Source of the DNA: Bugula neritina
Lineage: Eukaryota; Bryozoa; Gymnolaemata; Cheilostomatida; Bugulidae
Direction: 5' to 3'
Assembly (NCBI GenBank): GCA_964035545.1
Contig: OZ037765.1
Coordinates: 432,001 to 496,000, forward strand
Length of the DNA stretch: 64,000 nt
The translations under genes and the position numbers were made by a program. The notes under the pieces were generated by a model that saw only the letters and a list, made by a program, of their open reading frames with translations, was not told where the DNA came from and did not search any database. Below, piece after piece: positions 5,001 through 63,702 of this stretch; within the stretch, counting starts at the first letter, position 1; each line of letters opens with the position of its first letter.

Positions 5001-8000
5001 GATGGTAGGCACAGTTATATAGACTGTCTACTTACTGCCAGCCTTGCTTCTACCTGCTCTGTAGGAACTTTCTACACCCTAGGCACTACTTAAAGTTGTT
5101 TGTTTGTGTTGCTCCTTCTAAAGGTTTCCTGTTACTTTGTACACAATGCAGCAGTATAGTATAATAGCTGGGTTATATTTTATGAATAAATTATTTATTT
5201 GAATTTCCAGGTTTGCAGAAGTGCAGAAGAAAAAGCCAGATGATATTTGTGTTTACTACAACATAGACGGGGAAATCACCAACTCTGATAGACTAGTGTT
5301 TCCCAATCACCTTTGTAGGTCAGTGGTCAGTCTGTCAGTATGTAGTAGTCAGTTAGTATTTAACTAATAGTCAGTGTGTATTCAACTAGTAGTCAGTGAA
5401 TAGTCTGTAAACTATTATTTGAAGTGATTTGACCAACTTTGCTCTTTTTAGAACCTCTCGAGCGTTTTTTGAACAATTCTTGAAAGTGATGTTGAGGTGG
5501 GACCCAGAGTCGCGGGGTGGTAGAGCCGAGTCTGGAAGTGTGGACAGAGATAGATGTTGGAAACTTCTGGATAATATACTCAGCTCACCTGTTAGTGTGT
5601 CTCTTATTTACCTTACTATATTACACTTGTTAGTGTGTGTCACTTGTTAGTGTGTGCCGTACTTCATATTACAGCTACTCTTCATATACTGTGTACCACT
5701 AAACAAGCTACTAACCTACCCTGTGGAAGACAAGCACACTATCAAAGACGTGCTGAAAGCGTTGGAGCGCGAGACCTCTATACCAATGACCGAACTCGAG
5801 CTGCTCACAGTGCAGGGGACTTTTCTCTCTCTCAACCAAAGAGCTCGGGATATGGCTGGTCAGGTGAGGGGACAACTCCCTAGCACTTCTAGTAATAAAT
5901 CAAATCAGTCAGTCATTTTAGAGTTGTTTTCACATCATTAATAATACAGCAGCATTCTCACAACTGCATTTGGATACAGCTACTGCCACTTGCCTTTTTA
6001 ATGTAGTTTATTACATTACACTACATCTTATTGCGGTATCTCATTATATATTATGTTATATTATTTATATCATATTATGATGTTGTAATCCCTGAGTGTC
6101 TTGTAGGACGAACAGCCCAGTCTCTACGTCTTCAGGAAGTTCAAAGGAGACAACCAAGATGAAGTCCTGCCGCCTCTTCCCTCTGACGGTAAACTGTTTC
6201 CTGAACTTGTCCAGTTTATGATACAGAGAGAGGATATAGCTCTCAACAGTGAGGTTAGTGCAGACGTGTTACTGTACTGCAGACGTATTACTGTACTGCA
6301 GACGTGTTACTGTACTGCAGACGTGTTACTGTACTGCAGACGTATTACTGTACTGCAGACGTGTTACTGTACTGCAGACGTGTTACTCTACTGCAGACGT
6401 ATTACTGTACTGCAGACATGTCCCTTCTATTCTGCAGGATCAGGTAAAGTTCATGTCCCAGGGGGCATACTACTGTGGAGAGAAAGCCAAGGAGTTCTTG
6501 AGAATATATCTGTCCTCAAAGGCCATCTGGTAAATATCTTTCTGCTGCACATGGATGTTGTTATTATAGTCTTAGTTAATCAGTCCTGTACCTCACTTCC
6601 TGTATGCTACTTCCTGTGCACTACTTCCTACATACTACTTCCTGTATGCTACTTCCTGTGCACTACTTCCTGTACATCACTTCCTGTATTCGACTCTTTT
6701 CACAGGTACAGCCTCATGAGAGAATTATCAGATTTTGTGAAGAATAGAAATATTGTGAGAGCTGAGCTGTTTAATCTACACATTCTAATAGACTTCTGTG
6801 ACCAGGGGTGAGTATCCTCATGTGTTATATGATAGGGTGAATATCTTTACATGTGTCTAGTATAGTAGGGTGAGTATCCTTACATGTGTCTAGTATAGTA
6901 AGGTGAGTAAGGCTGTATGTATAATTATGTATCCTCTTATAAACTGTCTCCTTACAGATTCCAAACAGACTTGGCGCAGTACGAGAGCCAAAGTCAAGAT
7001 TCCACCGGAGGCGCTAGGTTTGGTAAGTTTTCCACTGTCTCTCCACTCTGTGTGCCTCAGTATAGCTTCCGGTGTGCCACTGTAATACTAGAGCTGTGTA
7101 TCAGAGAGTGTACCACTGTAATACCGTATGTTTCAGAGAGTGTAAATACGATAAAGAGTTGGAATGACATGAGAGCAGAGCTTAAAGCCATGAAAAGTCT
7201 TGTAAGTCGTATTATATTAATCTCTCTGTGTATTATATTACTCTCTCTGTATTATATTACTCTCTCTCTGTATTATATTACTCTCTCTCTCTGTATTATA
7301 TTACTCTCTCTGTGTATTATATTACTCTCTCTGTGTGTATTATATTACTCTCTCTGTATTATATTACTCTCTCTCTGTATTATATTACTCTCTCTCTCTG
7401 TATTATATTACTCTCTCTCTGTATTATATTACTCTCTCTCTGTGTATTATATTACTCTCTGTATTATATTACTCTCTCTCTCTGTAATATATTACTCTGT
7501 CTGTATTATATTACTCTCTCTCTGTATTATATTACTCTCTCTCTGTATTATATTACTCTCTCTCTGTATTATATTACTCTCTGTGTGTATTATATTACTC
7601 TGTCTGTGTATTATATTACTCTCTCTCTGTGTATTATATTACTCTCTGTATTATATTACTCTCTCTCTCTGTATTATATTACTCTCTGTATTATATTACT
7701 CTCTCTCTGTAATATATTACTCTCTCTGTATTATATTACTCTCTCTCTGTATTATATTACTCTCTCTCTGTATTATATTACTCTCTGTGTGTATTATATT
7801 ACTCTGTCTGTGTATTATATTACTCTCTCTCTGTGTATTATATTACTCTCTGTATTATATTACTCTCTCTCTCTGTATTATATTACTCTCTGTATTATAT
7901 TACTCTCTCTCTGTAATATATTACTCTCTCAGTATTATATTACTCTCTCTCAGTATTATATTACTCTCTCTCTCTCTCTCTGTGTATTGTATTATATTAT

Positions 8001-10208
8001 ATTATATGATATTATATGATACAGGAAGAAGAGTTGAACCAACTGAGCACGCTCTATGACCAGCTGCAGATGTCTATTGAGGAGTTGAAGAAGAAGCCCT
8101 TCTCAGTCTATCAGCAGTATCCCGGGGCCGGCATTCACCAGCTGTAAGTTCCTCGGCACCAGCCTCTTTCTCACTCAACGTCTGCCTATTTCACATCCTG
8201 TAGTAACTTCCTCTGTCCTATCACCTCGGGAACCTCTACCACATATAGTTCACTCACGTCCTCATGTCTAGTCTATATAAAGTAGATATAATTCAGTGCA
8301 CTAGCTAGCTGTAGAACTCAGCTAGTTAGTGTGGCTGTAGAACTCAGCTAGTTAGTGTGGCTGTAGAACTCAGCTAGCTAGTGTAGCTGTAGAACTCAGC
8401 TAGTTAGTGTGGCTGTAGAACTCAGCTAGTTAGTGTAGCTGTAGAACTCAGCTAGTTAGTGTAGCTGTAGAACTCAGCTAGTTAGTGTGGCTGTAGAACT
8501 CGGCTAGTTAGTGTAGCTGTAGAACTCAGCTAGTTAGTGTGGCTGTAGAACTCGGCTAGTTAGTGTGGCTGTAGAACTCAGCTAGTTAGTGTAGCTGTTT
8601 AGGAATTTAGGAGTTACCTCACCCTGTCTATATCAGACCATCAGGGGAGACAACTCGCAACTAAATGTTCCTCTTGTAGATTTGAGAAGAGCCATCAGCT
8701 CTACATAGACATCCGAAAAAGATCTCGGGGTAAGTTTTCTGTCTGCGAGTCCATGTTTCCTGTTACCTTTTATCTGTAGAATTTTCCATCTATTATCTAC
8801 ACTCTATTATCTACACTGTAGGTGAGACAGTGAAACCAACCAATCAGGACATGCTGTCGTGTATCTCACAGATCACTGCGCTGAGTGAGAGACAGACTAA
8901 CGGACTACACGCCTACTGCAGGTACAGTCTCACTCCGTCTCCCTCCAATCTGCAACTTGTAGACGGAGTTGTCACTCTACAGAGTTGTTATTCCTGGTTA
9001 AATATAACTGAGGATGTGCAGTCAGTCTATTCAGTCACATGGGAGAGTTGTGTTACCCTGTAGAGTAGGAGTTGTGTTACTCCGTAGAGTAGGAGTTGTG
9101 TTACCCTGTAGAGTAGGAGTTGTGTTACTCTGTAGAGTATAATATGTGTGTAGAGTAGGAGTTGTGTTACTCTGTAGAGTGATGATGGAAAAGAGGCTGA
9201 AGATAGCCAGCCTAGCCGAGCAGCTCAGCTCCATCATGACCAGAATCGGAGAGTTTAGGGAGCAGGTCAAGGCCTTTCAGCAGAAGAGACAGGAGGACAT
9301 GTGGAAGTTCATTAAACTAGCAGTGAGTGTGCAGTGTTACTAGTAGTAGTAGTAGTTGTCAGTTGGACTAGTAGTCAGTTGGACTAGTAGTTAGTATACT
9401 AGTAGTCAGTTGTACTAGTAGTCAGTATACTAGTAGTTAGTTGTACTAGTAGTTAGTTATACTAGTACCCAGTCATACAGCTACTCATAGTGTTGCCCTC
9501 CATTTCACAGTTAGCCAGCAAACCCTCGGGAAGATCAACTCCCAGTATGGGTGTCAGTCCGGCCCTCCAAACTACTGTGATGATAACCCGGGGCTCCCTA
9601 GACTCTATGCGCACTATGACTCAGTACGAGCAGGTGAAGTCAAAGTGAGTATCTCTTTCTCTTTTCTTTGAGATATCTCGTGTATTCTCACATTATCTCG
9701 TGTATTCTCACATTATCTCGTGTATTCTCACATTATCTCGTGTACTCTCACATTATCTCGTGTATTCTCATATTATATCGTGTATTCTCACACTATCTCG
9801 TATATTCTCACATTATCTCGTGTATTCTCACATTATCTCGTGTATTCTCACATTATCTCGTGTATTCTCACATTATCTCGTGTATTCTCACATTATCTTG
9901 TGTATTCTCACATTATCTCATGTATTCTCACATTATCTCATGTATTCTCACATTATCTCGTGTATTCTCACACTATCTCGTGTATTCTCACATTATCTCG
10001 TGTATTCTCACATTATCTCGTGTATTCTCATATTATCTCGTGTATTCTCATATTATCTCGTGTATTCTCATATTATCTTGTGTATTCTCACATTATCTCT
10101 TCTTGTTTTGTCAGATCTGGATCGCTGATGAACGAGAGAGGTTCTAGTCCACAGTCTGCATCCAGCAATGCTGATTGGTCGTTTCTTGACCCAGATAAAG
10201 CTACGTGA
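2001..10208 (+). CDS. IKK: IkB kinase (IKK-alpha/beta type), 19 exons, 744 aa
   Basis: Predicted catalytic IkB kinase of the NF-kB pathway. Exons: 2001-2093, 2656-2871, 3859-4020, 4290-4379, 4880-5004, 5211-5318, 5452-5590, 5675-5863, 6107-6253, 6438-6529, 6706-6807, 6958-7022, 7137-7201, 8025-8143, 8680-8729, 8822-8921, 9178-9322, 9511-9644, 10115-10208. All joins keep phase and give 744 residues, against 745 for human IKK-alpha and 756 for IKK-beta. Visible: loop [13 protein letters not shown] lysine, [10 protein letters not shown] hinge, HRDLKPEN (about 138-145), the IKK-type DLG (164-166), and an activation loop with serines at about 175 and 179 matching IKK-beta S177/S181. A ubiquitin-like domain (about 312-374) and a helical scaffold/dimerisation region follow. 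The C-terminus carries ADWSFLD (about 733-739), like the IKK-beta NEMO-binding LDWSWL. Identification is strong; alpha versus beta cannot be assigned and it may predate that split. Confidence 0.95.
2872..3065 (+). repeat. 20-bp tandem array starting at the IKK intron 2 donor
   Basis: About nine to ten copies of GTGAGTTATTAGTTAGTAGT. The first base of the array is the first base of the intron, so the real 5' splice site (AAT|GTGAGT) is unit one and each later unit repeats a GTGAGT donor core. The remainder of this 987-bp intron is unique AT-rich sequence. Confidence 0.9.
3391..3400 (+). promoter_or_regulatory. kB-type site in IKK intron 2
   Basis: GGGATTTCCC fits the Rel/NF-kB consensus GGGRNNYYCC exactly. 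It lies inside the gene for the kinase that activates NF-kB, so a feedback role is conceivable. A few chance matches are expected in a window of this size, so this is only a candidate. Confidence 0.3.
4381..4795 (+). repeat. AT-rich tandem array filling IKK intron 4
   Basis: Degenerate copies of a unit containing ATAATACTCTAATATGATA and its near-palindromic continuation occupy most of the 500-bp intron. The array begins just after the GTGAGT donor and stops about 85 bases before the acceptor at 4879. It can fold into AT-rich hairpins. Confidence 0.8.
6264..6418 (+). repeat. 19-bp array of acceptor-like units, IKK intron 9
   Basis: About eight copies of a unit reading ACGTGTTACTGTACTGCAG. Each ends in a CTGCAG that matches the true acceptor of this intron (TATTCTGCAG ending at 6437), so the unit looks like a multiplied 3' splice site. 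It sits within a 184-bp intron. Confidence 0.85.
6590..6690 (+). repeat. Short CTACTTCCTGTA array, IKK intron 10
   Basis: Several imperfect copies of a TACTTCCTGTATGC/ACACT unit (11-13 bases) precede the acceptor of the 176-bp intron and supply its pyrimidine-rich tract. Confidence 0.6.
6806..6911 (+). repeat. Three-copy donor repeat, IKK intron 11
   Basis: The intron starts GGGTGAGTATCCT. Related blocks beginning GGGTGAATATCT, GGGTGAGTATCC and AGGTGAGTAAGG follow at roughly 33-43 base spacing with TCTAGTATAGTA between them. The donor has therefore been copied downstream of itself at least twice. Confidence 0.6.
7210..7990 (+). repeat. CTCTCTGTATTATATTA array, IKK intron 13
   Basis: Roughly 40 copies of a TATTATATTACTCTCTCTG unit with a variable number of CT steps. 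The array fills nearly the whole 823-bp intron between exon 13 (ends 7201) and exon 14 (starts 8025). It is open in two frames over long distances, which creates spurious open frames rich in YYITLS. These are not coding. Confidence 0.9.
8305..8600 (+). repeat. 26-bp tandem array, IKK intron 14
   Basis: About eleven copies of a unit containing GCTGTAGAACTCAGCTAG and TTAGTGTG. Copies differ mainly at single positions (AGTGTGG or AGTGTAG). The array is central in the 536-bp intron and does not touch a splice site, although each unit contains CTGTAG and CTCAG trinucleotides typical of acceptors. Confidence 0.85.
9046..9180 (+). repeat. 26-bp acceptor array, IKK intron 16
   Basis: Five copies of a unit with TGTGTTACTCTGTAGAGTAG run up to the acceptor. 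The true site (TTACTCTGTAG ending at 9177, then exon 17 beginning AGTG) is the last unit. Each earlier unit repeats TGTAGAGT, the acceptor plus its first exon bases. Confidence 0.8.
9340..9470 (+). repeat. ACTAGTAGTCAGT array, IKK intron 17
   Basis: Degenerate 16-19 bp units of the form TTGGACTAGTAGTCAGT occupy the first part of the 188-bp intron, beginning about 17 bases after the GTGAGT donor. Confidence 0.7.
9668..10100 (+). repeat. 20-bp tandem array, IKK intron 18
   Basis: About 21 copies of ATTATCTCGTGTATTCTCAC with few substitutions fill the last IKK intron (9645-10114). The array is pyrimidine-rich on the transcribed strand and abuts the final acceptor region. It is open in three + strand frames, which explains the long spurious frames there. 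Confidence 0.9.
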
Positions 10209-55993: not shown

Positions 55994-58900
55994 TTATTTT
56001 GAAGGGAGTTTGTTGGGAAATTTGGGAAAGAAAAAAAGCTTCCTGAGATGAGTGAAGGAGCATTCTAGTCGGGTTGGCACATTCCCGCCAGTCTGATCTC
56101 CTGTTTTCTTGCAGTAAGCAATGCTGACCTGTCTAACCCTGTCCTGTATCTGCAAGTAAAATAGTCACTTGTGAGATGGTTTGTCGAAAAGTTTTAGTGT
56201 ATCAATATTCAGTTATACTTGACCACAATGCATAGTCAGAAATATTTTTCTATATAGCATGATATTAAAAAAGACAAAAGTTTTTAATAAAATATTATGC
56301 AGTGTAATGCTAGCAAAATAGAATTTTTTTTCAATACTAATAGTATAAACTATAAGCCATTTCTTCTAATTGTAAACCAACTCAATGTGTTTGAATAAAT
56401 TACCAAAAAAGGTTTAAACTGGTTGTCCATAAATTGACACATTTAGGCAGTATCTCCCCACCGCAAATTTATATTTATATATTTGAGTCATTATAGTAAA
56501 TAAATATTTAGGTCACCCATTACATAATGGCATTGCACAATTTTTTGTTGAGCTATCCGTAGGTTAGAAATACCTCGCAATAACTTACAATCTTGAAGAG
56601 TTCATCAACATCTCTGTGGCAACTGTGTTTATAAAATGTAGCCACTAGTATTCTAATAAACCATGTACCATAAGCGTCGTGTCTACCAGCTTTATACACT
56701 GCAACATCAATATAACATACATTAGGTTTTGTGTTTAAGATAATATAATATATTGATAAAACCTAAACTTCAAGACTTGTATATGTTTCATACATTCTGC
56801 ACTTGGTTTTACAATGTAGAAGTCATCTACATCCAGGTGTGTGAATCTATTGAAGTCAGCATTTGATTGGGTGTGTTGATCTGGTGAAACTGTGGAGGGA
56901 GATGAGGGTAGAGGCGCTGCTGTTGGTGATTGTTTGGTAGAGCTTTTTGACTGCAAAGCAGTACCAAAATCAGATCTACCTATAATAGTAGAAGATGAAA
57001 AACATACAGAATTAAATTATTAATGAGGGTGGTATGTAGGAAACACGCGTAACCTATGTTCACTAAACTTCTGGTATGATAGGCAATGCTAGACATTTTT
57101 TGCAGCATTATAATTTAAATGTTTAGAATCATCGCTCAGAATTTTACTTTAGCCATGAAGGTTAAAAGTCTTATAGCACAATGCTACTTTACATATATTC
57201 GCAGCAATCTGTAACACCAGGTATGTTCAAATAAAGGGCAACTGCTAAAGCTATGTAGAATAATATGAGAAGTTTAGAATATAATTTAGTAGCTTTTAGT
57301 AGTATGAAACAATTACGCAAGCCTTCATGGTTTATATGGTAATGTTTCTTTAGAGAAAATTTCTGGTTGTAATAAGACCCATACACTTTTTGGTGTATTT
57401 TATTTCGAAAAGCTTTTTTAAGACCCCAAGTCATAATGAACACGGGTGATAGCTGTACAGCGCAAACTTTTATAAAATAAGCATGGTGGTTTTTGAGCTA
57501 GATTCTTAAAGATGGCTTGAGTTTTTTCAGGTTTAACTCTCAATTAAATTTACAGCAAACAGGAATAGAATAATTTTAGAAAAACTCATCTATCTTACTT
57601 CCTGAGCATGCGTGGAATATAATGAGTTTGGGCTTTCCTCCCATAGCAGGAAACTTGCTAGCTGAGAGTAATTCTTTAATTTCCGAAAGGTTGACAGGTG
57701 TACAATCTCTGTCGTAGAAAACATTGCCCAAAGTTCCGTGAGACATGATGACTAGTACAAACATGCTCAGGTGATTGTGCTCTTCCTGATCAGTCTCCAT
57801 CTTTAACTCTGCTAGTGTTTCCTGAAATAGTTAGACCAGTACTAATTATTCCTTCCACATATCTTACTGAGATTTAAAAATATATGTATCACCTTTTAGC
57901 TGTTTAAAATAAAACCAATAGTTCAACAATTTAGGACTCAGCTTGAAGTTTGAGCATACCTGAAACAATTTTTAACTTGGGTTTTTACGTACTTTGCAAG
58001 AGTTTGCCTAAAAGTTAAAACTAATGCAGTACTCTGCCAAAAATGCAAGCTACCTCCTTTGTCAAATCAAACATAGGTTCATCTTCTTTGACTACAACAA
58101 ATCCCATGTCTTTGAACAACTTTTTGATATTGTAGTAGTCTATGTGTGAGCCATGGCGAGTTGCTTTTGTATTTTCTCTGCCTTCTTTTGTGAAGAATCG
58201 TTCGTAGTTAATAATCATGGCCCGACCTTGGACAGGGTTGCTCACTGCGTAAACCTACAACGAGAAAGTTGTGCAAATCGATGGTTCATATAGAGAATGA
58301 CTTTTACAGGAATTTTTCAGCAGGTTTAGGAGTACAAGACTGTGGTGCTGTAATGCTCCAGTAACTATGCACTATAGTGCAATGGGTAGCTCACGCTGAT
58401 GTTCAAGTTAAGGACAAGGGGGGGGGGGAGAGGGGTAGTAGTTTTACTGAAGGAAATATCAGAGGTGACCTGTTTGTGATTGCTAAATAGCTTCTTAATC
58501 TTTTCGTTAGTGGTGGGCTTTAGCTCCATGTCTTCTATCAGAGAGATGAAAGGTTCAAGGTCACTTTGCGTAAAGTCAGCATATCCCCTGTCTTCGATGT
58601 CGGAGCATTCACTGATTTCATCATCTTCGGCTTGCAGATGCAGCATCTCTTCCTTCACCACATCTACAGGTTTCACAGTTTAACACAGAATAGTAGCTGT
58701 GCGGCCAGTGCAACTACTCGTATTTTGATATACACTTGGTGACTCAAACTTATACATTTTCAATGTATCTCCGTCGAGTGAGTATTTTAATTTAGAGGCA
58801 GCCATAAAGTGTTAATAGCAGCTGCATTAGCTGCTACAAATATTTAAATATAGTATTTATTTTACTGCTAGGCTATTTATAATGACGTATATAGCATTCA

Positions 58901-61900
58901 ATCAAAACCTCAACACTGAAATTAATATAAAATTGTCATGCTACATTGCATTGACCAAAACTTAACTTACAGTAATTTACCAAATAGATTAGTGTTATTG
59001 CTAATAGCATTATTCTTGACCCCTGCTAAGGGCTTAGATTTTTTTGTACAGTACCTTTCATCTATATGTTATATAACTATATAACATATTTCAACACTTT
59101 TTTATTTGTATGCAAGTATATAGAATAATTATATAATGTACTCATATAATCTAATAACACAATGACTACTGGAATTATCATACCAGAGAGAGCAGTTGCA
59201 CTCTGTTCTTTTTCTAACTTCATTTGATTCACACAATCTTTTATGTAATCAGCCTCTTTTTCAGACAGGTGCTCACCTGTAAACGGAAATAAAATATAGA
59301 GTAAAGAATACAATAAAACTCACTAAAGGGAAACATTTGTGAAAAGCAAGAGAAGGACAGAAACATACATGGGTGGAGAAGGGCTGTAGGTATTTCTTCA
59401 TCTTCACACAGAATTGTTGAGGATCCACTGCTAAGTTTGACATCTGGTTGCAGGTGTTTCAAAGAGTGAACACACCATTGAGGATTGACCAATCTCGTTG
59501 GACAAGGACGTTCTAGTAGCAAGCAGTGGGCACAGTAGCATGCAGTGACTGGTCTACTTGCTGTCCAGTTCTCTAGAACATGTCTCAGACTGTTGTTGGT
59601 CACTGTGACGAGTCTCTCCCACATTTTACTAGTGTTTATGGCATTAGATGACACAAAGAAAACCACCTTTCTTGACGCAGAGTCATGCACCAGTTGTATG
59701 TAAATACCATCCTGGTATACATTAACTCCATTCTTTTTAACTTTGACTATGGAAAACTCATATGGAAACAATTCTAGTAAACCAATAGTCATTTGATGAT
59801 AGATGTACTCTGGCAAGGCTAATCCGTTGAATTTGGTCTCGGCTTTCAAAAGTATGCTTTTTGGTGCAAAATAGAAATTCTTATACAAATCATTGGCAAA
59901 CTGAGGCATAATGAAAACCTGTTTTTCAGAATTGCTTTTTATTGGACCATGCAACAATCGGAAAGCCTTGAGCAAACAAATGGCAACTTCTACATCTTTC
60001 AAAACTTTAAAAGAAGTTTCCTTCTCTATCAAATAGATGAGTAAAACATCCATCATCAGGCCGGTGTTGGTAAAGTGATTCACATACTCGGCGAATTCTT
60101 GCTTTTCAATGCACTGACCATTTGGAGAAACGTACGGCAGAAACTGGTCAATTCGACTTTTCCACCTTGTGCTATAATCATGGTAGTACAAGACACATAA
60201 GAGTGAAGTAATTTCTGTGATTTTAGGGAAAATATAAGGCTTGCGAGAATCAATATCTTTATACCATAAGATTTTGCCACAATCGTGCATATACGTGAGA
60301 ATTATCTCTAGCTGCTTTGATTCAATGTCAATTTGTTTTGTTCGCAGCATAAGTAAGATGTACCAAAATGAGTGATAGGCCGACGGCAGGCCTGCTATTC
60401 CTTCATTGACTTCTTCCCAAACTTGAGGCAATGGCTTGATGAAGTCTTGACTGCTTTGAAGAAGAGATTCTCTGATCATATTGAATACAGCATATTTGTC
60501 ATCATTCCCTATTTCATATATATCTTCGGCTAGAAATATATTGTCAGGTGATTTATTAAAATGTCCGATTCGAGCAAAGTCGCCACCTAGTGCTTTTTCT
60601 TCGTTGACTATTTTCCTACATAGCTGGTTAGAGCAGTCAAGAAAGCTTTGCCGAAGCTTTTGAAATTCTGCACTTGGATATTTATCTTTATGAGTTAGAA
60701 TGAGTTTTGGTGCTCCGAGAGTTGGGTTTGCAAGATACAGATGAGACATGTAGTCAAAGGCTAACCTTCTAACAGCCTTTTTACATGTTAATTCTTTGGA
60801 AATTTGGTCATACTGCTCCATGTTGACTACTATGACTGGGATGCAATTTTGCTTCAGTGTCAGTTGATAAGTGATATGGTAGACCTCCTGGCCTCCCATA
60901 TCAATGAGACGAAGTACTGTACCATCCACCTCCACCTCCTCAACATTAAACACTTTTGTTGTCTCGTCTTTCACAGCATCCGGACTTCTGTCAGTCAGTA
61001 TTCTCTTCTTATCAGCATTCTGTAATGTTCTAATCAAGCTAGTTTTCCCAGCCATTGTATTACCCAGCACAGCTACAGTAGCAAATGGTAGACTTCTACC
61101 AGCACCTTTAGCCAAGTCTGTGTAGTATTGTCTCACAGCATCTACTCCTCTCTTACATATTTCTAGTGGAGGAGATGCTAGTGATTCACAGTTTTCTACT
61201 TGGAGAGTACGAAGTTGACCTAGCCTTATGATTTTAGCATCCAGAGATTTTAGATCGGTGTTATAGGATACGTCCAACTCTCTCAGATTTAGCAACCCGC
61301 ACACAGACAAAGGCAAGGCAGTAAAACCATTCCCTGCAATGCTTAGTTTTTCTAGCTTCTGCAAACTTTCTATACTGAAAAGTTATATACAAAATATATT
61401 AGCAACTTATACATAATGTATCATAACAAGTAATATGAGAAAACTTGATATTATTGAAATAGTTGAGTATATCATTACTTTCAGCAAAGCAGCACAAGTC
61501 TTTGTTATTACAAGCATAGGCTAATTTTTCTAAAAGTAAAGGACAAACAGGCTGTGCAATCATAATGATACTATAATATACACACTCATTTGACAGGGTT
61601 TTCAGTCGGCAGTTGCCTAAGTGTAACTCTCTCAGTTGGGAAAGAAATGTAAAGATGCCATCAGGTAAACCATCTGAAAAGTCATTCCATTGAATATCCA
61701 AAACTTCTAATTCAGTGAGTAGTAAGGTGCTACAAGGTTAAAGAATTACAATTTACGTTGTCAGAGTTAGTATGAGAGTGTTTTGACAACTATATAATAT
61801 TTTTCTGAAAATTTAAGAGAGGTAAACTAATAAGTATAGGTCTAAATGTTAGGCTTAGCCTTTTACAAGATAGTTCCTTTATATGCAGCGGTTTAGCTCA

Positions 61901-63702
61901 TAGATAACTTTGCTCTTAAATAGTCAACAATTGTCTCATTTTAGTGAGTTTTCAGTCAATTATTTGAGTTAGAGCTGGTAGGTCTATTGCTAAAAGTGTC
62001 CCAATTCTCTGGCTGTTTGATATAAAGGAAAGTTAGACCCACCTCTTGGGTAGAGTCACCAGATCACAATGGTGCATGTACAATTCTCTCAACTTCAGTA
62101 GACTTTCGAATATGTTGCCATGTAGACCTTCAGAAAGGTTGTTTCTTGATATATTCAACACCTCCAGGTTTTCAATATCAGATATGCTGTAACATTCATA
62201 AACACATTCATGAAAAGGAGATAAGAGCATCTATAATACATAATATGCAGTCTACATTTATAGACCAACAAGACCCAGCAACATACCTCAGCACACCTCA
62301 CCTAACTGAATGACTGTTCATTGAGTAAGAATTGCACACTATTTAGATGCTTTAGCATGCCTGACCCATACTTTTACTAGAAGAATTACTTGCAGGGCTG
62401 CAATACAATATTTTAGCCTAAGCAGTACTTTTACTACATTGATTTCCTGTTTAAAGCATTAAGAAGCACCCTGCGTTTTAAAAGCCGCCACAAGTTACTA
62501 TACAACAGACTAATAACAGACTAATAATGGACTGATACCAGACTGATAATGGACTGATACCAGATTGATAACATACCTTCTTGAGAGGGTTTCCAGCTTG
62601 CAGTTTTCCATGTTCAATTCTTTCAACGAATCCATGTAGAAGAATATATCACAGGCTAGCTTTTCTGATAAAGCATTTTCAGACACATTTAGCATTTCAA
62701 GGCCCTCCATGCAGAATAAACTATAAAATAAATGCAGTTAGGTTGATATGCAGAAAAACAATTAAAAACGCGGGGAAAATAAACATGACGAAGATTCAAA
62801 AGCCTCTACTGTCCTTGTAACTATTGAAGTGTATTTGTTTACAAAATACAGAAATGTGTTCGTTGTAAGTTACCAAACCAATTGGCAGTTACACATCTAA
62901 TATCAAAAAAAATATTTTGTCAACTAAATTGGGATATTTTAATATCTGATCTTCCATGCAGAACTGAGACATGATGACATCTTGAAAAAAAATTATTTTA
63001 AAAGACCACACAAAAATATATGCTAACATATGCTAACATATGCTATTGTAAACTAATATAGGTTATTGTATGCTAAAACATGCTATTGTATGCTAATATA
63101 TTCTATTGCATGATAATAAATGTTATTTGCATGTAGGCTAATTGATGCTATTGTAAACTAGTATATGCTAATGTATGCTAGTTCCTTCTTGTACTAAAAA
63201 AGCTGAAACATTTTATTCTGTAATAAAAAGATTTGCTTGTGTACCTTTGAGTTTAAATAGTTTATAGGTTTTATATACTTTAAATTTTAGTTAGCAAGTC
63301 TCATTTACCAGGTATTAACTTGATAAACATTAAACCATCATAACCTTGCTAAAATATGTGTGTGTGTGTTCATAGGAAATAAAAAATGACAATGCAACTT
63401 AGAAATATTAGTAGCAGCTATAAGCCTATACAGACCATTAATAATATTACACTACCTGTCCCAGTTGGCATTTTTAACCACTTTTCCAATTCTGAGACAT
63501 CCAAGCCGAGGAAACAGCTCGTCCATGTTTGGAGGGATGTTATTTCTCAGAACAGCATGTGTCACCATGTGGTCGACGTGTGTCAGCAAGTGTGTGTGCA
63601 GGTGCTTGATGCCATCAGTTGTATAATCTACAGTCTCACTGCTCACCCATTGCTCATCGTCTGCTTCTATCGGACACGTATTGAACCACAGGGTGTATAA
63701 AT
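55994..63702 (-). CDS. LRR-Roc-COR protein fused in frame to a caspase (5' partial)
   Basis: Predicted Roco-family GTPase with a C-terminal caspase. Exons in order: 63456-63702, 62577-62720, 62043-62186, 61586-61729, 59369-61374, 59184-59276, 58395-58663 (or 58470-58663), 58054-58254, 57599-57821, 56794-56979, 56589-56698, 55994-56149. All joins keep phase and give about 1306 visible codons. Parts: leucine-rich repeats (LEVLNISRNNLSEGL type); Roc with P-loop GNTMAGKTS (61041-61064), DMGGQEVYH and THKD; COR; a Cys cluster CYCAHC; an acidic linker; then the caspase. Caspase landmarks are RHGS, the His in MSHGTLGN, the Cys in FHACSG (usually QACRG), the p10 start DVDDFYIV, GTWFIRIL, and the end KLFFFP. 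The N-terminus is missing, as the first visible exon starts mid-codon. Two adjacent genes remain possible but need an ATG not seen in a good position. Confidence 0.82.
62500..62575. repeat. GACTGATACCAGA short repeat beside an LRR exon donor
   Basis: Imperfect copies of ACTGATAATGGACTGATACCAG directly follow the donor of the LRR exon 62577-62720 on the minus strand (AAG|GTATGTTATCAATCTGG). On that strand each copy reads CTGGTATCAGTCCATTATCA. Confidence 0.65.
62721..63455. other. Intron of the Roco-caspase gene, with ATATGCTA repeats
   Basis: AT-rich intron. From about 63020 to 63180 it has loose copies of ATGCTATTGTATGCTAATAT. No exon is seen. Confidence 0.5.

What the first reader, a model, noticed from the sequence alone, without database searches (positions are those of the whole stretch)
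55994..63702. A Roco GTPase continuous with a caspase: LRR-Roc-COR-caspase
The minus-strand exons of a typical LRR-Roc-COR protein connect through five phase-matched junctions to a complete caspase p20/p10 module. Seen: matching phases at 59369/59276, 59184/58663, 58395/58254, 58054/57821 and onward, and no well-placed ATG before the caspase exons. Known: Roco proteins (LRRK, MFHAS1, DAPK1 in part) carry kinases or death domains, and caspases are usually recruited through CARD, DED or death domains. Inference: here the sensor (LRR), nucleotide switch (Roc) and protease may be one chain, a self-contained inflammasome-like device. I do not know this combination as a described family.
Basis: partly seen in the sequence, partly recalled or inferred. 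Interest (0 to 1): 0.9.

Follow-up and report, generated by a model that had tools for sequence, protein, structure and literature searches.

The report
Animal LRR-GTPase-caspase fused receptor family
In a moss animal (bryozoan) genome, one gene appears to encode a sensor domain, a GTP-driven switch and a cell-death-type protease in a single protein, and it belongs to a large family seen in two bryozoan species, which suggests a built-in, adaptor-free alarm unlike our own inflammasomes.

Summary
Twelve minus-strand exons (63702-55994) read as one frame through 11 GT..AG introns, with one stop, at the end: LRRs, Roc, COR, Asp-rich linker, then a caspase with catalytic His and Cys. Watersipora subatra proteins P0013 and P0021 are the same fusion and, aligned to the window independently of my model, recover all 14 internal exon borders from 59369 to 56149. 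The genome is Bugula neritina (nine chromosome lengths match). There, 36 of 39 long Roc exons have a linker or caspase exon within 6 kb downstream; 0 of 39 upstream or antisense. The three exceptions carry caspase exons on spliced alignment. Twelve of 20 Watersipora relatives returned have a Pfam caspase. LRR-COR-caspase proteins are described in bacteria (PMC8195603); my nine paper searches found none in animals. Paralogs exchange Roc-COR and caspase modules, and some have lost the catalytic Cys. No transcript was seen. Likely role: one-chain death or immune receptor switched on by Roc-COR dimerization (inferred).

The parts
63456..63702 (-). Exon 1 seen in the window: conserved N-terminal region before the LRRs (start exon lies further 5', not found)
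   Evidence: Open frame, GT..AG; Watersipora P0027 maps onto its 3' part, 63574-63456
62577..62720 (-). Exon 2, LRR
   Evidence: 144 nt, phase match
62043..62186 (-). Exon 3, LRR
   Evidence: 144 nt; same borders from P0013 (3' border) and from P0024, P0026, P0028, P0037
61586..61729 (-). Exon 4, LRR
   Evidence: 144 nt; same borders from P0026, P0027, P0028, P0037
59369..61374 (-). Exon 5: last LRRs, Roc GTPase (P-loop GNTMAGKTS, DMGGQE) and COR in one 2-kb exon
   Evidence: Pfam LRR and Roc; model of P0013 matches Roco/LRRK structures over residues 1-726
59184..59276 (-). Exon 6: helical end of the Roco half, first linker exon
   Evidence: Both borders recovered with P0013 and P0021
58470..58663 (-).
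   Evidence: conserved motif in the alignment; linker hits at paralogous loci
58054..58254 (-). Exon 8: caspase p20, first part (S1-pocket Arg in TRHGS)
57599..57821 (-). Exon 9: caspase p20 catalytic part, His codon 57740-57738 (MSHG), Cys codon 57608-57606 (HACSG)
   Evidence: codon positions read off
56794..56979 (-). Exon 10: p20/p10 linker and start of p10
56589..56698 (-). Exon 11: p10 (second S1-pocket Arg in AGRHDAYGTWF)
   Evidence: Alignment to caspase-9
55994..56149 (-). Exon 12: end of p10 and stop codon TAA

Best explanation
A single Bugula neritina gene encodes LRR - Roc - COR - Asp-rich linker - caspase, one member of a large bryozoan family of one-chain sensor-switch-protease proteins. 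Shown by sequence: continuous frame, conserved intron borders, the same fusion in Watersipora, many paralogs, intact catalytic His/Cys and P-loop in the window copy. Inferred mechanism: the variable LRRs (and N-terminal region) sense a ligand, the Roc nucleotide state changes, Roc-COR dimerizes or rearranges, two C-terminal caspase domains are brought together and are activated by proximity as initiator caspases are, they cut themselves (the conserved Asp-rich linker between COR and p20 and the p20/p10 linker are the candidate sites), and the freed or tethered protease drives cell death or immune signalling without a CARD, DED or death-domain adaptor. My odds: one chain about 0.93; death/immune receptor with dimerization-driven activation about 0.5.
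For: One frame, 12 exons, one stop. Pfam C14, LRR, Roc; phmmer to caspase-9/CED-3/caspase-3. Watersipora P0013 aligned over 100% of the Roc-to-caspase query at 35% identity; P0013 and P0021 recover all 14 internal borders 59369-56149. 36 of 39 long Roc exons with a linker/caspase exon within 6 kb downstream, 0 upstream, 0 antisense; of 22 of those 39 loci fetched, 21 have caspase exons above the control scores, L008 not. 12 of 20 Watersipora proteins returned carry Pfam C14. Linker dN/dS 0.19-0.89 in 9 pairs. Model of P0013: Roco/LRRK fold then caspase fold. All 10 Watersipora rows and 15 of 22 B. neritina loci plus the window keep both His and Cys.
Against: No transcript or protein was seen. 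Watersipora proteins are automatic models and could share an annotation habit. 8 of 20 Watersipora relatives returned show no caspase: partial models, Roco-only genes or isoforms. Exon 7 has an in-frame ATG. The Roc-COR and caspase halves have partly different histories, as two adjacent genes could also have. The S1-pocket Gln is His in the window, and several paralogs lack the catalytic Cys or His, so the protease may not be the function in all. Roc is barely over its Pfam cut-off and below it in the 6 Watersipora proteins scanned.
Confidence: 0.7

Rival explanations
1. Two neighbouring genes: a Roco gene ending after exon 5 or 6 and a separate caspase gene starting near exon 7, always duplicated together.
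For: In-frame ATG at 58646 in exon 7. Sequence similarity between paralogs L013 and L020 stops at the end of exon 5. Eight Watersipora relatives returned have no caspase domain.
Against: Phase-matched junctions, borders recovered with independent Watersipora proteins, the ATG position not conserved, the linker exons mostly constrained, and 12 annotated Watersipora proteins with caspase attached.
Confidence: 0.06
2. One locus, two products: alternative splicing or polyadenylation gives a Roco-only protein and the LRR-Roc-COR-caspase fusion, so the caspase is an optional effector.
For: Watersipora P0022 ends just after the exon-6 equivalent; other Roco models without caspase exist; P0028 is named 'isoform X2'.
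Against: Those models may be partial; no isoform data were available.
Confidence: 0.2
3. The caspase domain works mainly as a scaffold or dominant-negative decoy in much of the family, with proteolysis secondary.
For: Among 22 B. neritina loci aligned, Cys is Ser in 5 and Tyr in 1, and His is Leu in 1; L028, read by eye, has Ala. Bacterial conflict systems have many inactive caspase effectors (PMC7159879, passage).
Against: The window copy, 15 of those 22 loci and all 10 aligned Watersipora copies keep His and Cys.
Confidence: 0.2

Closest known systems
Bacterial LRR-AP-GTPase(Roc)-COR proteins with C-terminal effector domains (Kaur et al. 2021, PMC8195603)
   Same: LRR, Roc, COR, then an effector at the C-terminus; caspase is one of the listed effectors; multicopy in one genome (section 15). 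A bacterial LRR-Roc-COR-TIR protein, P0046, also appeared.
   Different: Here an animal gene with introns; the caspase half matches animal caspases -9, CED-3, -3 and -6. I did not compare it with the bacterial caspases.
MFHAS1 (NCBI's name for most of the Watersipora relatives)
   Same: LRRs followed by Roc-COR.
   Different: MFHAS1 is described as the simplest arrangement, LRR plus ROC-COR (PMC4104024, passages); no caspase.
LRRK1/LRRK2 and DAPK1
   Same: Roc-COR switch joined to a catalytic domain on one chain; best solved-structure matches of the P0013 model include LRRK1/2.
   Different: Their catalytic domain is a kinase; here it is a protease.
Trichoplax Roco proteins with CARD, death or TIR domains (PMC4104024, passages)
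   Same: Animal Roco proteins tied to cell-death or immune modules.
   Different: Adaptor-type death folds rather than the caspase itself.
NLR inflammasomes and the apoptosome
   Same: LRR or repeat sensor, NTP switch, caspase output (general knowledge).
   Different: Roc GTPase instead of a NACHT/NB-ARC ATPase; protease on the same chain; no death-fold domain reported by Pfam in the window protein.

Membership tests
Roco (Roc-COR) proteins | Roc GTPase with P-loop | tested here: met
   Pfam Roc 28.3 bits, cut-off 27; P-loop Lys in the window and all 22 B. neritina loci aligned, and in 9 of 10 Watersipora rows, the tenth (P0021) lacking that part. Below the Pfam cut-off in the 6 Watersipora proteins scanned.
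Roco (Roc-COR) proteins | COR domain after Roc | tested here: met
Animal caspases (C14A) | Catalytic His-Cys dyad in a p20/p10 domain | tested here: met
Animal caspases (C14A) | S1 pocket Arg, Gln, Arg (names recalled) | tested here: inconclusive
   Both Arg positions kept, Gln replaced by His in the window; Gln in all 10 Watersipora rows.
Animal caspases (C14A) | Cleavage after Asp | not testable with these tools
   Needs enzyme assay.
Bacterial LRR-Roc-COR-effector conflict proteins | LRR-Roc-COR-effector order | tested here: met
   Order met; comparison by description in PMC8195603.
Bacterial LRR-Roc-COR-effector conflict proteins | Common descent with bacterial fusions rather than a new fusion in animals | not tested
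   No bacterial Roc-caspase protein was placed in a tree.
NLR / NACHT receptors | NACHT or NB-ARC ATPase | tested here: not met
   No such Pfam model on the window protein at E<=1; the switch is Roc.
CARD/DED/death-domain caspases | Death-fold prodomain | tested here: not met
   No CARD, DED or Death model on the window protein at E<=1; the 5' end is incomplete, so an N-terminal one is not excluded.

The most novel reading that the evidence does not exclude
Cheilostome bryozoans carry an NLR-independent receptor system: an expanded family of one-chain LRR-Roc-COR-caspase receptors (at least 39 long Roc exons in one genome, 38 with a linker or caspase exon by search hit or spliced alignment above controls plus L008 by linker hit alone), in which sensor/switch and protease modules are reshuffled at a phase-1 intron, active and inactive copies coexist, and the related caspase cassette is also attached to ankyrin arrays. 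It would serve pathogen sensing or colony allorecognition through direct, adaptor-free caspase activation.
Probability: 0.45. Interest if true: 0.9.

Novelty: new variant of a known kind. Interest (0 to 1): 0.8.

Why it matters
Animal caspases are normally recruited through death-fold adaptors. A family where sensor, GTPase switch and caspase are one chain would show a different, self-contained route from detection to protease, reached in animals as in bacteria. It offers a simple test bed for how Roc-COR proteins (the LRRK2 class) transmit nucleotide state to a C-terminal enzyme, because the output is protease activity. The size and module exchange of the family make bryozoans, colonial animals with little-known immunity, a candidate system for receptor diversification and possibly allorecognition.

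Tried and rejected
Rejected: splice artefact or chance open frame. Not resolved: the 5' start exon (the two candidates found scored low). Counting all Roc-COR copies with the 669-aa exon-5 query never ran: searches were unanswered, so counts rest on the capped Pfam Roc search (150 of 338 candidates scored), the capped caspase search (134 of 317 scored) and the linker search (78 of 78). L002 and L008 were dropped before the alignment (incomplete or broken caspase models); P0029 and P0038 too; L013 fell out of the caspase tree for lack of length. L020's model holds one in-frame stop in p10 and was aligned with X there. Many small exons that my aligner adds at the 3' ends of the divergent loci are probably noise; I rely on the exon-5 to exon-9 part. 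A Mantel test of Roc-COR against caspase distances is positive (r 0.65, 27 rows, 0 of 2000 shuffles), which fits shared descent, yet individual pairs are discordant, so both are told. Paper searches gave no animal Roc-caspase fusion; PMC3501461, PMC3196919 and PMC13326412 (passages only) did not mention one in the passages returned. The library holds open-licence papers only. The third protein search reached no named animal other than Watersipora; that tool needs shared 5-residue words, so absence elsewhere is not shown.
Full report
Identity of the genome. The window is positions 432,001-496,000 of contig 1 of a 215.8-Mb genome in 295 contigs. The lengths of contigs 1 to 9 returned (35.64, 33.58, 32.42, 24.80, 17.72, 16.05, 15.81, 13.35 and 10.88 Mb) equal those of chromosomes 1 to 9 of Bugula neritina tzBugNeri2.1 in Table 3 of PMC11480708 (passages; 216.00 Mb in 320 scaffolds there). 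I take the organism to be this cheilostome bryozoan.

Gene model. Twelve minus-strand exons from 63702 to 55994 join into 3848 nt, open in one frame with one stop at the end; all eleven introns are GT..AG. The LRR exons 2-4 are 144 nt each with introns after the second codon base; the Roc and COR regions sit in a single 2-kb exon (61374-59369); two short exons (59276-59184, 58663-58470) form the linker; five exons (58254 to 55994) encode p20 and p10. The chain starts further 5': stretch L001 and a scan for a start exon did not reveal a convincing first exon.

Domains. On the joined protein Pfam reports Peptidase_C14 (E 4.1e-28), LRRs, and Roc just over its cut-off; no COR model at E<=1. The caspase half matches solved caspase-9, CED-3, caspase-3 and caspase-6 chains (best E 4.6e-19), the Roco half mainly LRR proteins and, over the LRR-Roc part, the Chlorobium tepidum Roco protein and LRRK2. 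The window copy keeps His in MSHG, Cys in HACSG, both S1-pocket Arg positions and the P-loop Lys; the S1 Gln is His (residue roles recalled).

Independent test with another genus. The protein search returned annotated Watersipora subatra proteins, P0013 (1105 aa, aligned over 100% of the query region, 35% identity) and P0021 (853 aa). Aligning each to the window DNA with my splice-aware aligner, which saw only that protein and the DNA, gave the same 14 internal borders from 59369 to 56149; this fixes the exon-7 donor at 58470. P0022, a Watersipora Roco model without caspase, supports the Roco exons only. Over, 20 distinct Watersipora proteins were returned; 12 carry Pfam C14 (P0013, P0021, P0024-P0029, P0035, P0037, P0038, P0041) and 8 do not. 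The only named organism with both halves was Watersipora. The Watersipora project has RNA-seq, and its Ensembl annotation is described as built mainly from transcript alignments (PMC12902671, passages); the proteins I used are NCBI models whose support I did not see.

Recurrence in the same genome. From the Pfam Roc search (150 matches scored of 338 candidates) I took the 39 places in open frames of 460 aa or more, like the window's exon 5. A caspase p20-exon hit lies within 6 kb downstream on the same strand of 18 of 39, a linker-exon hit of 29 of 39, either of 36 of 39; upstream on the same strand 0 of 39, on the opposite strand 0 of 39. I fetched 22 of the 39 (L002-L023), including the three exceptions (L007, L022, L023). 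With the caspase half as query, 21 of these 22 score 174-1035 against 48-88 for 25 antisense and five other-window controls; L008 scores 91 and is not counted. In 16 of the 20 loci the p20 catalytic exon is 223 or 214 nt (223 in the window) and in 15 of 20 exon 6 is 93 or 87 nt; the 3' exons of divergent loci are less certain. All counts are lower bounds because the searches were capped.

Selection. For 9 close pairs, counting dN/dS gives 0.12-0.31 (Roc-COR), 0.19-0.89 (linker exons) and 0.13-0.53 (caspase). The linker is thus mostly, not uniformly, constrained. Across the window-type paralogs and Watersipora the linker keeps an acidic motif of the form SD(I/V)SD(V/S)E..GY(A/C)D (alignment; ECSD in B. 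neritina copies), a candidate autoprocessing region (inference).

Module exchange. Roc-COR trees (33 rows) put the window and 21 of the 22 B. neritina loci in one clade apart from Watersipora, L025 falling with Watersipora. The caspase tree (32 rows) instead groups the window with L011, L018, L020, L024, L025 and, at 94/87 support, with eight Watersipora rows, apart from 16 other B. neritina loci; the deepest split has support 87/87, below the starred level, and the root is a midpoint. Within one Roc-COR clade (97/94) sit both caspase types. The sharpest pair is L013/L020: Roc-COR exon 88% identical, dS 0.25, but exons 8-9 36-47% identical with saturated synonymous sites; L013/L019 show the reverse (75% and dS 0.72 against 87-89% and dS 0.33). 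At DNA level L013 and L020 match only over the exon-5 stretch (90.8% over 2028 columns), ending about a dozen bases into the intron, while L011 and L020 match across several introns. Recombination or gene conversion at the exon-5 borders fits; since these introns share a phase, swapped modules stay in frame (inference).

Active and inactive copies. Of 22 B. neritina loci aligned besides the window, 15 keep both His and Cys; Cys is Ser in five chromosome-6 loci (L007, L009, L010, L016, L017), Tyr in L023; His is Leu in L012. All ten Watersipora rows keep both. Divergent B. neritina copies also mostly have Glu for the S1 Gln.

Other sensors on related caspases. Of three further caspase hits sampled, L028 is another Roco-caspase, while L026 and L027 lie downstream of long open frames of ankyrin repeats (Pfam Ank_2 E 2.7e-81 and 6.2e-32); joining those frames to the caspase exons was not tested further.

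Mechanism. Established (recalled): Roco proteins signal through nucleotide-dependent dimer changes, and initiator caspases are activated by proximity. From the order of domains I infer that LRR sensing and Roc-COR rearrangement bring two caspase domains together, followed by self-cleavage in the acidic linker. Nothing here tests ligand, GTP dependence, activity or cell death.

Known or new. Kaur et al. 2021 (PMC8195603; passages, section 15) describe bacterial LRR-AP-GTPase-COR proteins whose C-terminal effectors include caspase, and PMC7159879 (passages) notes many inactive caspase effectors in bacterial conflict systems. Animal Roco proteins with CARD, death and TIR domains are described in Trichoplax (PMC4104024, passages). 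Nine paper searches showed no animal Roc-caspase fusion. I therefore call it a new variant of a known kind: the bacterial design, present and expanded in an animal phylum with an animal-type caspase.

Noticed in passing
L026:1924-4950 and L027:2634-4286 (chromosomes 2 and 9): Long ankyrin-repeat open frames upstream of related caspase exons: the caspase cassette may also be fused to ankyrin sensors in the same genome.
   Followed up: partly
L013 versus L020: The Roc-COR exon is 90.8% identical at DNA level but the attached caspases are of different types: exon-bounded recombination or gene conversion.
   Followed up: partly
L007, L009, L010, L016, L017 (chromosome 6, 2.6-4.1 Mb): Caspase copies with Cys replaced by Ser, so a set of predicted inactive Roco-caspases.
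   Followed up: partly
Watersipora P0027 and P0035, N-termini: They begin MGAKSSK and MGCSLSR, resembling N-myristoylation signals (recalled motif), which would suggest membrane anchoring.
   Followed up: no
L001:2951-5100 (+), 6532-7395 (+), 7600-9900 (-): Upstream neighbours look like a trypsin-type protease, a reverse-transcriptase fragment and a GRASP-like gene; named by eye from the ORFs, no search made.
   Followed up: no
window:63820-63945: Tandem repeats of a 17-base-like unit (ttgacttagctg...) just upstream of exon 1; L001:1133-1430 has another simple array.
   Followed up: no
G000 unplaced contigs such as C58, C90, C99: The best Pfam Roc matches in the genome lie in short frames with several in-frame stops on small contigs; small GTPases or foreign DNA, not examined.
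   Followed up: no
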